From: Siphonodentalium dalli
Lineage: Eukaryota; Mollusca; Scaphopoda; Gadilida; Siphonodentaliidae
NCBI GenBank assembly: GCA_032622095.1
Contig: CP136069.1
Coordinates: forward strand, 188,285,122-188,349,121
Direction of reading: 5' to 3'
DNA: 64,000 nt
The position numbers were made by a program, and so were the translations under genes. This document shows positions 10,111-49,840 of this stretch, piece by piece (the stretch's first letter is position 1; every line of letters begins with the position of its first letter). A model generated the notes under the pieces. That model was given only the letters and a program-made list of their open reading frames with translations. It was not told the origin of the DNA and did no database searches.

Positions 10111-10305
10111 AACAACAAATGCCGGGATGGTCGACAAAGCCGACCCCATCGTATTAAATTCGATTTACTACATTCCTGTACTCATCGAAGTTGGTATATT
10201 CTATCTGATTTTACAAACTAAATCAAATAATACAAACTAAAGATACTGGCATGCAACAATAATGACATAATGAGAGAACAGTATACAGTTGTCGCCCGTT
10301 GTCGA

Positions 10306-10414
10306 GGGAGACATTGAGATTTGTCACCCGCTCGAGAACGGAATGTCTCCCGAGGAGCGAAGCTCTGAGGGAGACATTCCGTTCTCGAGCGGGTGACAAA
10401 TCTCAATGTCTCCC
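10306..10414. repeat. Perfect 46-bp-arm hairpin
   Basis: Arms 10306-10351 and 10369-10414 are exact inverted copies (core CACCCGCTCGAGAACGGAAT) around a 17-base loop. The loop holds a smaller stem, GAGC-GAA-GCTC. Its G+C content is well above the surroundings. The absence of mismatches implies recent origin or active correction. Confidence 0.9.
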
Positions 10415-11198
10415 GAGAAGAAGGGCAACAACTGTTTTGTTATCCGATTATACCACAGAAAATATACTTGCCATCCACACGCACGATGTTGCACTGAGTC
10501 ACGAGTGCTTTCTTTCCCGATTATATATATTTTCAGTAACTTCTTATCGTCCCATAGGATTTCCGTTCCATAAACAATAGTCAAGCCGTTAAGCGTGTGA
10601 TAATCCGCGTTTATTTACGATCATTTTGGTGGTTAAATCGTCAATATAGGTCCATGCAATGTAAACCAATAAGCCATATAGTTATGTTCTCGTCTTCTGC
10701 AATGTGGCATATTCAATGTCGTCTTGTGTGCGCAATTTACTCGCTATGTTCATTTCATAACGGTCTTCCCCGAAAGCTATTGGGAAGTTGTCAACTTCAT
10801 TAATGTACATTCATATGTGTCAGTGCTCATGGCGATCCTCACATAAAATACTTCTATGATCACATTGCAGACATCGCGGAGGATACGCGTACAGTACTAT
10901 TCATTCGCGACAAACGTATGCATTACGTTGTCTACCAGCAAACATATATAACCAACCAACTTCAAGGGATCCTCTCTTTCAATCTTGCATCATAATGTCG
11001 ACATGAACAAATTGAATCACCGAGATGTTTCGATGTAAGAAGTAAATAATAACGCTTGTCCGATAAAAGTATCAACTTAAAAGTTCGAATATTAGTGTTC
11101 ACTAAATATATGCAAATTATCAAACACCACAACTGGTGTGTATTGCGAATCCGTGGGTATATAAGATCTATGATTTTTTAGTACGCATAGTGATGTGA
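10415..11198. other. Gene-free stretch
   Basis: Ordinary A+T-rich DNA with no coding frame I can support. Confidence 0.4.
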
Positions 11199-17481: not shown

Positions 17482-17631
17482 CCCTTTACCCAACAGAACG
17501 GCCAAAAACGCCAAAATAAAGCTTCAACAGCCTAAAATATCTTCGGTCTGTCTCAATAACACCATACAAATATGGATATAATTGGAACCGGTTCATTGAC
17601 CACATTGTGATGGTTACAGTTATGCCCTGTA

Positions 17632-17698
17632 CCAATGCATTCTCTTATATATGCGAGTCGACCACAGGTCGCCTCGCATATATAAGAGAATGCATTGG
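17632..17698. repeat. Palindrome A of TTAA MITE copy 1
   Basis: About 30-bp arms (CCAATGCATTCTCTTATATA then TGCGAG) are inverted around a short centre with a GTCGACC-type motif. The arms are almost perfect. Confidence 0.85.
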
Positions 17699-17842
17699 CC
17701 TAAAAAATTCTTTTTAAACACTTTTTACCATTTTTTCTTACATTTTTTAACAATTTTATTTTTTGTTCTTACATTTTTTAACAATTTTTATAATATTCTT
17801 CTACATTCTTTGACAATTTTATCATTTTTAATATGTGTTAAG

Positions 17843-17909
17843 CCAATGCATTCTCTTATATATGCGAGGCGACATGTGGTCGACTCGCATATATAAGAGA
17901 ATGCATTGG
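17843..17909. repeat. Palindrome B of TTAA MITE copy 1
   Basis: This has the same arm sequence as palindrome A with a slightly different centre (GGCGACATGTGGTCG). Two palindromes with the same stem in one 455-bp element can pair within or across each other. Confidence 0.85.
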
Positions 17910-17940
17910 CACAGGGCCGTTCTGTTGGGTAAAGGGTTAA

Positions 17941-19459: not shown

Positions 19460-19867
19460 CCCTTTACCCAACAGAACGGCCCTGTGCCAATGCATTCTCT
19501 TATATATGCGAGTCGACCATAGGTCGCCTCGAACATATAAGAGAATGCATTGGCTTAACACATATTAAAAATGATCAAATTGTCAAAGAATGTAGAAAAT
19601 ATTATAAGAAAAAATGGTAAAAAGTGTTAAAAAAAGATAATTTTTTTAGGCCAATGCATTCTCTTATATACGCGAGGCGACATATGGTCGACTCGCATAT
19701 ATAAGAGAATGCATTGGCACAGGGCATAACTGTAACCATCACAATGTTGTCAATGAACCGGTTCCAATGATATCCATATTTGTATGGTGTTATTGAGACA
19801 GACCGAAGATGTTTTAGGCTGTTGAAGCTTTAAATTGGCGTTTTTTGCCGTTTTGTTGGGTAAAGTG
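19460..19867. mobile_element. TTAA-flanked MITE with two internal palindromes, copy 2 (inverted)
   Basis: TTAA at 19456-19459 and 19868-19871 flank CCCTTTACCCAACAGAACGG on the left and its slightly altered inverse on the right. Both internal palindromes are present (about 19486-19552 and 19652-19718). The spacer is A-rich here, so the element is inverted relative to copy 1. Confidence 0.85.
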
Positions 19868-22454: not shown

Positions 22455-22669
22455 CAGTAATGCCCTAAGTAATCGACTCTTTAACTACAGCAGAATTATG
22501 GGTAACTTTTCAGGATTTAGTCGGAAATATGGCTTGTTGCCATACATCGGAAAGCTCACGGGGAGAGCTTTCCGATGAATGGCAACAAGCCATATTTTCG
22601 ACTAAATCCTGAAAAGTTACCCATACACTTCTGCTGTAGTTACAGAGTCGATTACTTAGGGCATTACTG
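22455..22669. mobile_element. TA-flanked palindromic MITE, intact copy
   Basis: A 215-bp near-perfect palindrome (arms of about 103 bp, loop near 22558-22564) begins CAGTAATGCCCTAAGTAATC and ends in its inverse, with TA immediately outside both ends. A TA target fits the Tc1/mariner group. The arms match each other at nearly every base, so this copy is close to the source sequence. Its diverged relative is at 49508-49720. Confidence 0.9.
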
Positions 22670-48613: not shown

Positions 48614-49208
48614 TTAGATATGAGTTATTGTAACCAGGGTAGACTTAAGAGACCCATACTAGTCAAACTCTGTATTCACCCAGTAAAGTCAACTGATTAA
48701 CAACTCAACTAAATTCTTCATTACTAATATTATAACTAAACTATAACTACTACTTCTCTATGTATAACATATACTGTTATACCTCAATTTAATTTTATTT
48801 TATTTCACTTCATTTTGTTTGTTGTGAAATACTTGTGCCAACTTGTCTGGTCAAATAAAGTGTTTACTGTAATCAGAGACGTCATGACATGGGTGTTGGG
48901 GCATGTCAGTTGTAAACTGCAAGAGGTGGACATCCCTGGATGGAGAGAATGCGATTTTCATTCTAATCAGTACTATTGCTTTGTATGACCCACATACGTG
49001 AGTAAAGGGGGATGCCCAGTTAACTTGAGTGCACGATAAGAGGTACCACGTATTGCGGACCGGAAGCTGACATAAGCTAATGATAGGCAGAGCACCCTGC
49101 TGTATAGGCAGTTTCAGAATCAGTCAGAAAGTTGAAATACAAACGTGTGTATTGTGTCAGAATTAATATTACGACAGAGTATCTCATGTTATCGTTGGAT
49201 GTCATCAC
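48614..49208. other. Non-coding stretch
   Basis: Possible 3' untranslated region up to the AATAAAG at 48855. A CAGAGACGTCATGAC fragment at 48876 resembles a hAT-type terminus but has no partner. Confidence 0.4.
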
Positions 49209-49469
49209 ATGTGTTCTGATCGAGATGAAGTTGAATTTGACCTTTTGGAAAAGTTTGGAGTAGTCACTTATGTTCTCTACGACTCATTATCAATCGAAAT
49301 GAAAACTCGCGTTCACTTAGCCGGGATGCTTGATTGTCTCGTAACAGTGGATATGTCTCTCGATTTTGATAAAATCGCCAATTTCTTTATTCGTAATAAT
49401 TGCAAATTGTGGCGGCGATATCACGATAAATTAATACCAGAGAAGATATTGGGAAACTCCCCCGCATAA
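49209..49469 (+). CDS. Unrecognised 86-codon frame
   Basis: This ATG-started frame has acidic N-terminal and basic C-terminal parts (FDLLEKFG, IRNNCKLWRRYHDKLIPEKI). Codon content is less A+T-driven than in chance frames nearby. No signal peptide, membrane segment or domain is recognised. It ends 38 bases before the palindromic MITE relic at 49508. It could be a single exon. Confidence 0.3.
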   Translation: MCSDRDEVEFDLLEKFGVVTYVLYDSLSIEMKTRVHLAGMLDCLVTVDMSLDFDKIANFFIRNNCKLWRRYHDKLIPEKILGNSPA

Positions 49470-49507
49470 AGACAACCGTTGGATAGTCTGACATTGTTTA
49501 TATATTG

Positions 49508-49720
49508 CAGTGGTTCCAAAGGTAGTTGATCACTTGGCCGCGTCACAATTGTGGGTGGTTTATCGGGATTTGGTCGGGGGTATGGCTTGTTGCCATTCAC
49601 CGGAGAGCTGTCGATGAGGACTTTCAGATAAGTGGCGGCGGGCCATGTTTCCGACTGGATCCTGAGGGGTGCCCGTGGTTCTGCTGTGGCTGTGTGGACA
49701 ATTGCTTTTGGGTATTACTG
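49508..49720 (+). mobile_element. TA-type palindromic MITE, A-to-G hypermutated copy
   Basis: Full-length relative of 22455-22669 (213 against 215 bp, collinear): GGCTTGTTGCCATTCA is unchanged and the outer CAGT and ATTACTG ends are kept. By hand alignment about 35 differences are A in the intact copy and G here, against about three G-to-A. This holds in both arms on the plus strand, so A-T pairs of the hairpin have become G-T. Flanking DNA stays A+T-rich, so the change is confined to the element. Confidence 0.8.
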
Positions 49721-49764
49721 AATATACTTATATATATACGCGGTAGCACATTCCTTTCGTATGT

Positions 49765-49840
49765 GTATGCAAGTGGATGTATGTGCATGTATGTGTATGT
49801 GTGTATGGGCATGTATATGTATATGTGTATATATATATAA
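49765..49840. repeat. GTAT/GTGT microsatellite
   Basis: Runs of TGTATG, GTGTAT and finally TATATATA occupy about 75 bases. Confidence 0.8.

What the first reader, a model, noticed from the sequence alone, without database searches (positions are those of the whole stretch)
49508..49720. Palindromic MITE copy with strand-specific A-to-G hypermutation in both arms
Seen: two full-length copies of one TA-flanked palindrome (22455-22669 and 49508-49720) align base for base with almost no indels. The first is a nearly perfect hairpin and so approximates the source. The second differs mainly by A-to-G on the plus strand, in both arms (about 35 by hand, against about three G-to-A and few T-to-C). Ordinary decay or CpG loss would not be one-directional, and C-to-U deaminases would give the opposite change. 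Known: ADAR enzymes convert A to I (read as G) in long duplex RNA and can act on RNA:DNA hybrids. Inference: this copy passed through an edited hairpin RNA that was reverse transcribed, or its DNA strand was deaminated in an R-loop. Either would be an unusual route for a DNA-type MITE.
Basis: partly seen in the sequence, partly recalled or inferred. Interest (0 to 1): 0.85.

Follow-up and report, generated by a model that had tools for sequence, protein, structure and literature searches.

The report
RNA editing written into the genome
A hairpin-shaped mobile element sits inside a copy-and-paste retrotransposon whose RNA appears to have been chemically edited at about half of its adenines before being copied back into DNA, and this seems to have happened about twenty separate times in this animal genome.

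Summary
The A-to-G excess is real, but this is not one hypermutated MITE. The copy lies in the 3' region of a 5'-truncated LINE (window 49133-49839). Among the LINE copies found, 24 carry this edited MITE, six are MITE-free at the junction, and none carries an unedited one there. The edited strand is the LINE sense strand.

MITE copies cut from 107 places gave 22 edited flank groups (about 21 insertion events): 709 A>G, 30 T>C, 27 G>A, 49 C>T against the nearest unedited palindrome. A reference-free hairpin test agrees (G.T 18-54, A.C 0-3). Neighbour preference is ADAR-like: edited fraction after T .68, A .63, C .45, G .19. LINE coding homology is on the edited strand only in 14 host families, on both strands in one, on the other strand (weakly) in one. 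Edits lie on at least three palindrome backgrounds and fit independent draws with shared site preference. The genome has two ADAR-like genes with catalytic motifs. A second MITE family shows 13 A>G and no other transition.

Best explanation: MITEs inserted into LINE noncoding regions, ADAR hyper-edited the RNA hairpin, and reverse transcription fixed inosine as G. My searches found no report of genomic fixation.

The parts
49508..49720 (+). Edited MITE copy: 213-nt palindrome nearest to subfamily A2, with 36 A>G on the plus strand in both arms
   Evidence: one of 24 LINE copies sharing the edited MITE at this site
49133..49839 (+). 5'-truncated LINE copy in which the MITE lies, 95-96% identical to L064 and L065
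   Evidence: L065 carries RVT_1 (E 4e-29) upstream of its MITE on the same strand
49350..49469 (+). Probable C-terminal end of the LINE ORF2 up to a TAA stop, 38 nt before the MITE
   Evidence: frame read by eye; the L065 ORF matches at 95% over 44 aa at about 49129-49260
22455..22669 (.). Unedited MITE copy of subfamily A1 in unrelated flanks with TA on both sides; nearly perfect palindrome
   Evidence: 0 A>G against the A1 majority sequence
49721..49839 (+). LINE 3' end after the MITE, ending in a TATG/TGTA-rich simple tail

Best explanation
A Tc1/mariner-like palindromic MITE inserted at a TA in the 3' untranslated region of an active LINE. When the LINE was transcribed, the MITE part of its RNA folded into a 100-bp perfect hairpin. 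ADAR deaminated about half of its adenosines to inosine. LINE target-primed reverse transcription read inosine as G, and the edited LINE copy became the parent of a family. The same chain of events took place at about 20 other MITE insertion sites, most of them in other LINE families of this genome. Shown here: nesting in a LINE, empty LINE sites, sense-strand A>G that begins at the hairpin, ADAR neighbour preference, several backgrounds, ADAR motifs in the genome. Inferred: that ADAR is the enzyme, that it acted on the RNA in the germ line, and that the LINE's own reverse transcriptase fixed the change.
For: Twenty-two flank groups: 709 A>G, 30 T>C, 27 G>A, 49 C>T, 124 transversions. Reference-free hairpin test: those 22 groups have G.T 18-54 and A.C 0-3, the A-type unedited copies G.T 0-3 and A.C 0-4. 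5' neighbour: edited fraction T .68, A .63, C .45, G .19 (G against the rest p 1e-34); 673 of 1309 adenosines edited. LINE coding homology on the edited strand only in 14 host families. Six empty sites: LINE sequence runs through without the MITE in L133, L134, L135, L136, L138, L143. All 24 filled copies found of that LINE are edited. Over about 440 columns of upstream LINE flank, fixed differences are 2 A>G, 2 G>A, 1 T>C, 1 C>T and 3 transversions. Two copies (L024, L025) lose the left part of the MITE but keep its right part and the first bases of the LINE end, as 5' truncation would do. Edit sets of 22 groups disagree as independent draws with site preference would (.271 against .282) and lie on different compensated palindrome backgrounds. 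ADAR motifs CHAEI/PCG/SCSDK and SHAEI/PCG/SCSDK. A second MITE family in L120: 13 A>G and no other transition.
Against: No RNA reads were available, so editing of the transcripts is not shown. The independence test alone cannot exclude star-like descent from one edited ancestor; the different backgrounds carry that argument. Strand evidence is not unanimous: L129 has an endonuclease match on the edited strand (2 kb off, at cut-off) and a zf-RVT match on the other strand (E 1e-5, just below cut-off, 0.4 kb off); L131 has only a weak endonuclease match on the other strand (E 1e-3), though its surroundings align at 67-75% in the same direction as L128/L130. Three of the 14 families rest on ORF1-like homology alone, and L126 on a zf-RVT match below cut-off. 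L120 and the L061-L063 family have no coding homology inside the shared unit. Empty sites and flank spectrum were worked out for one family only. Target-site duplications of the LINE copies were not checked. 124 transversions show that many copies also carry ordinary decay. Site groups were found with edited queries in capped lists, so the share of edited MITEs in LINEs is not measured.
Confidence: 0.88

Rival explanations
1. One MITE was edited once, then moved as an ordinary DNA transposon to all these sites (a G-type subfamily).
For: Most edited sites have clean TA flanks and intact termini.
Against: Edits lie on at least three compensated palindrome backgrounds, including one with none of the compensated changes (L034) and the A2-like one; a change at position 26 is however shared by 19 of the 22 groups. 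Pairwise disagreement of edit sets fits independent draws. A TSD base reads G at some edited sites (TG left of the 49508 family, L026 and L101; TG right of L038 and L095), as editing after insertion would give, but decayed TSDs also occur in unedited copies (for example L160), so this is weak. DNA transposition would not align the edited strand with LINE sense.
Confidence: 0.06
2. ADAR deaminated deoxyadenosine in DNA, in an R-loop or in the RNA:cDNA hybrid of reverse transcription.
Against: The DNA strand in both hybrids is antisense, which would give T>C on the LINE sense strand; A>G is seen. The upstream flank, equally hybridised, shows no A>G excess.
Confidence: 0.03
3. Selection kept the RNA hairpin while GC content rose, so A-U pairs became G-U pairs one by one.
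For: The sense RNA of the edited copy still folds well, -111.5 against -52.9 kcal/mol for the other strand.
Against: G-C to G-U (C>T) would be equally allowed but totals 49 against 709. The L034 group has 34 A>G and one other change. The 5' neighbour effect has no reason under selection.
Confidence: 0.01
4. Transcription-associated strand asymmetry of ordinary mutation.
For: A>G over T>C bias on coding strands is known (recalled).
Against: The ratio is 709 to 30 inside hairpins and 2 to 1 in about 440 flanking columns.
Confidence: 0.01

Closest known systems
ADAR hyper-editing of a palindromic Harbinger DNA repeat RNA in Xenopus tropicalis (PMC5625713, passages seen)
   Same: A 221-bp palindromic DNA-type repeat whose own RNA hairpin is heavily edited (65 of 77 adenosines).
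   Different: There the edits are seen in RNA reads; here they are in genomic DNA, inside LINEs, and inherited by copies.
APOBEC 'DNA editing' of retrotransposons (PMC2873906, passages seen)
   Same: A deaminase leaves clustered, one-strand changes in retroelement copies that become genomic.
   Different: APOBEC gives G>A through cytidine deamination of cDNA; here A>G on the sense strand, confined to hairpins, through adenosine deamination of RNA.
A>G hypermutated retroviral genomes ascribed to ADAR (recalled, not from any call)
   Same: Edited RNA copied by reverse transcriptase.
   Different: Infectious retroviruses, not a host's LINEs carrying MITEs.
Proposed but undetermined role of ADAR editing in retrotransposon subfamily evolution (PMC4982230, passages seen)
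   Different: It says this had not been determined; here are lineages that fit it.

Membership tests
ADAR hyper-editing | Clustered A>G on one strand of a double-stranded RNA structure | tested here: met
   709 A>G against 30 T>C over 22 groups; G.T against A.C hairpin test
ADAR hyper-editing | 5' neighbour preference, G depleted | tested here: met
   T .68, A .63, C .45, G .19; second MITE family 0 of 13 after G
ADAR hyper-editing | Catalytically competent ADAR in the genome | tested here: met
   two genes (C7 at 54.4 and 36.4 Mb) with HAE, PCG and SCSDK motifs; activity and expression not tested
ADAR hyper-editing | Inosine in the RNA | not testable with these tools
   no RNA reads
LINE (non-LTR retrotransposon) copy | Reverse transcriptase and endonuclease ORFs in fuller copies | tested here: met
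   reverse transcriptase in L065 of the same family (RVT_1 E 4e-29); its endonuclease was not found, while other host families have Exo_endo_phos
LINE (non-LTR retrotransposon) copy | 5' truncation with common 3' end | tested here: met
   window copy starts at query base 73 of 450; L024 and L025 start inside the MITE
LINE (non-LTR retrotransposon) copy | Target-site duplication around the LINE | not tested
   not examined
Tc1/mariner-type MITE | Short, terminal inverted repeats, TA duplication | tested here: met
   nearly all A-type copies have TA on both sides and different flanks; the majority sequence is a palindrome but for its loop
Tc1/mariner-type MITE | Autonomous partner with the same termini | not tested
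   no search for the transposase; the superfamily name rests on TA and CAGT ends (recalled)
APOBEC DNA editing / RIP | G>A or C>T excess | tested here: not met
   27 G>A and 49 C>T against 709 A>G

The most novel reading that the evidence does not exclude
RNA editing is a recurrent, heritable mutator of retrotransposons, and it licenses them: a LINE that catches a perfect hairpin MITE spreads only after ADAR has replaced enough A-U by G-U pairs, and reverse transcription hard-wires that state so later transcripts need no editing. ADAR would then shape LINE lineages as APOBEC shapes retroviruses, but by permitting and not only by damaging.
Probability: 0.3. Interest if true: 0.92.

Novelty: new variant of a known kind. 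Interest (0 to 1): 0.85.

Why it matters
A-to-I editing is regarded as a change of RNA that leaves the genome alone. Here it appears to have been written back into the germ-line genome about twenty times, in founders many of which then multiplied. That gives a DNA record of germ-line ADAR activity that can be read from assemblies without RNA, lets ADAR site preference be measured in any sequenced animal with such elements, and makes testable whether editing shapes retrotransposon evolution, a question that the review seen left open.

Tried and rejected
A lone hypermutated copy: rejected, since 23 of the first 25 B-type loci cut (L001-L023) share their left flank. C-to-U deaminases and CpG loss: rejected by the spectrum. 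The L038 family (40 listed copies) first looked like a DNA transposon because of a 230-bp inverted repeat; five copies compared show one common 3' end, with three different 5' starts among four of them (the fifth, L063, is cut by the fetched stretch), which looks like a retroelement; no coding homology was found in the unit, and a reverse transcriptase ORF in L061 lies outside it and was not counted. A host clustering by script merged nearly everything because of neighbouring MITE copies and was not used. Of 52 non-MITE hairpins in the long loci, 12 have a G.T/A.C skew of 4 to 1 or more. Nine were looked at: L064, L065 and L128 are TG/TA microsatellites, L067, L146 and L147 are tandem repeats, L061 is unclear, and the two in L120 are hairpins of other elements; L062, L152 and L153 look like the L061 place and were not viewed.

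Rows dropped before the 22-group counts: eight groups that repeat a site already counted or are truncated (L001, L011, L013, L032, L076, L024, L025, L079); L079 and L025 show A.C 6 and 5, the others 0-2. L077 and L080 share a left flank and are probably one event. Nine places were cut twice (L064-L070, L074 and L075 repeat earlier loci), so L001-L116 are 107 places and group sizes count those twice. The paper search on hybrids found nothing.

Mended on re-check: one search computed a sign test for 15 of 15 families. At first only 30 of the 58 ORFs of 140 aa or more had been sent to Pfam, few of them from the strand opposite to the edited one. The other 28 were then sent. They added L126 (zf-RVT, sense, below cut-off) and turned L129 into a case with LINE homology on both strands. 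Sense only against opposite only is 14 to 1 (p .001); counting L129 against as well, 14 to 2 (p about .004, by hand). Confidence was lowered from .90 to .88 for this.

Full report
Observation. The two window copies align over their full length with 36 A>G, 6 T>C, 5 C>T and 4 G>A. The second copy is not flanked by TA but by TG and AA. As RNA, its plus strand folds at -111.5 kcal/mol and its minus strand at -52.9; the 22455 copy folds at -174.2. In an ungapped scan of the window the 49508 hairpin has G.T 15 and A.C 3, while the large counts elsewhere are at most about 2 to 1.

Copies in the genome. The own genome (2.23 Gb, 9 contigs, unnamed animal) returned 40 scored candidates for each MITE query; such lists are lower bounds. 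Copies like 22455 have different flanks, with TA duplications in nearly all cases, and their majority sequence is a 213-nt palindrome but for its loop, called A1 here. Copies like 49508 share their flanks: 23 loci (L001-L023) have the same left flank, and L024 and L025 lack it. So the edited MITE was multiplied as part of something larger.

The vehicle. L065 has a reverse transcriptase ORF (RVT_1, E 4e-29) upstream of the MITE, on the strand that carries A>G. The window copy keeps the last 707 bp of this LINE (49133-49839), with an ORF end at 49467-49469 by eye and the MITE after it. A search with 450 bp of LINE upstream of the MITE gave 37 rows, all 36 candidates scored. By coordinates, 25 rows are 24 copies that run straight into an edited MITE: L001-L023 and the window. 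Of the other 12 rows, 11 were fetched: six copies (L133, L134, L135, L136, L138, L143) join upstream and downstream LINE sequence without any MITE there, one (L137) reaches the junction but shows neither, and four do not reach it. One 49-bp row was not fetched. No copy with an unedited MITE at this site was found; L138 has an unedited half-copy about 400 bp further on. Over about 440 columns of upstream LINE the fixed differences between filled and empty copies are 2 A>G, 2 G>A, 1 T>C, 1 C>T and 3 transversions, so the excess begins at the hairpin. The larger totals printed include misaligned columns past the junction, which I did not use.

Other sites. Queries with L034, L038, L035 and L116 and cutting out further copies gave 116 loci at 107 places, in 52 flank groups. 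After dropping eight repeats or truncated ones, 22 groups are edited. Against the nearest unedited palindrome they total 709 A>G, 30 T>C, 27 G>A, 49 C>T and 124 transversions. The L034 group has 34 A>G and one other change; L077 has 30 A>G, no other transition and 3 transversions. Without any reference, folding each group on itself gives 18-54 G.T pairs and 0-3 A.C pairs in the 22 edited groups, and 0-3 and 0-4 in the A-type unedited ones.

Enzyme signature. Of 1309 adenosines in A.T pairs of the inferred sources, 673 are edited (51%). By 5' neighbour: T 222 of 327, A 274 of 432, C 120 of 269, G 54 of 278 (G against the rest p 1e-34). This is the known ADAR order (recalled; PMC2873906 passages also note G depletion upstream). 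The genome encodes two ADAR-like genes with HAE, PCG and SCSDK motifs, and further weaker deaminase-domain matches.

Independence. A second unedited palindrome subfamily, A2 (L116; 40 candidates scored, all at 98-100% on their better strand), carries compensated changes in both arms that recur, mostly or wholly, in the edited copies of the 49508 family, L026, L028, L035, L037, L038 and L107, but not in L034 or L077. Edits therefore arose on several backgrounds; one compensated change (position 26) is shared by 19 of the 22 groups. Edit sets of the 22 groups disagree at .271 of shared sites on average; independent draws with the same site preferences give .282, with the spread inside the null range, and .50 would be expected without site preference. 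This test alone cannot separate site preference from star-like descent.

Strand relative to LINEs. With each locus turned so that the edited strand is plus, all 58 ORFs of 140 aa or more were sent to Pfam (30), and 21 of the proteins were compared between loci by tblastn. Reverse transcriptase, endonuclease or ORF2 homology lies on the edited strand only in the 49508 family, L068/L069/L124, L070-L073, L074-L076, L117, L122, L123, L125, L127 and L132, and below cut-off in L126. ORF1-like homology alone, a weaker ground, does so in L066/L067, L118/L119/L121 and L128/L130; that these are LINE ORF1 is inferred from similarity to the ORF upstream of the endonuclease in L070-L073. That makes 14 families. 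Every cross-locus hit listed is on plus. Against: L129 has an endonuclease match on plus (27.5 bits, cut-off 27.4) and a zf-RVT match on minus (26.2 bits, cut-off 27.5); L131 has only a weak endonuclease match on minus (E 1e-3), though its surroundings align in the direction of L128/L130 at 67-75%. L120 and the L061-L063 family gave no coding homology inside the shared unit. Sense only against opposite only: 14 to 1, p .001. The MITEs lie in 3' regions or between ORF1-like and ORF2-like sequence.

Generality. In L120 an unrelated palindromic element of TTAACCC type, 1.7 kb from the edited MITE, differs from the majority of four relatives (both orientations) by 13 A>G and no other transition, on the same strand, never after G. 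A third hairpin there has G.T 10 and A.C 2. One edited RNA spanning several hairpins would explain this.

Mechanism. Shown: nesting in LINEs, sense strand, excess confined to hairpins, ADAR-like context, several backgrounds, empty sites. Inferred: ADAR acting on LINE RNA in the germ line, and fixation by target-primed reverse transcription. Deamination of DNA in an RNA:DNA hybrid would mark the antisense strand and is disfavoured.

Literature. Nine searches were answered and three papers were read in passages; of the rest I saw listings. RNA-level hyper-editing of a palindromic DNA repeat is known in Xenopus; APOBEC marks in retroelements are known; a 2016 review called an evolutionary role of ADAR editing in Alu subfamilies undetermined. 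I found no report of ADAR hyper-editing fixed in genomic LINE copies; these searches cover only the open-licence library, by words.

Noticed in passing
L120:541-759 (C9:185576080-185576298): A second, unrelated palindromic MITE family (TTAACCCTTTCAGTGCC ends) carries 13 A>G and no other transition on the same strand as the edited MITE nearby.
   Followed up: partly
L068:1249-3600: Up to five edited MITE copies or pieces in the same orientation within 2.4 kb of one LINE host; smaller clusters in L124, L128, L130 and L131.
   Followed up: no
L066-L073, L119, L121, L130, L132: Several edited MITEs lie between ORF1-like and ORF2-like sequence, or just after ORF1-like sequence, of different LINE families, which may be a favoured or tolerated site.
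   Followed up: no
L062:2475-7352: The L038 host unit has a 230-bp inverted copy of its own 3' end inside it, with one common 3' end and varying 5' starts.
   Followed up: partly
L064:306-1894: Neighbouring ORFs with weak matches to a tyrosine recombinase (Phage_integrase, E 5e-5) and a Dam methyltransferase (E 3e-5), on the strand opposite to the edited one and outside the LINE unit; perhaps a DIRS-like element (name recalled).
   Followed up: no
L076:852-1397: A cytochrome P450 domain fragment (PF00067, E 5e-42) lies on the edited strand upstream of an edited MITE.
   Followed up: no
window 17624-17917, 19479-19725, 10285-10435: Other long near-perfect inverted repeats in the window, without the G.T skew.
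   Followed up: no
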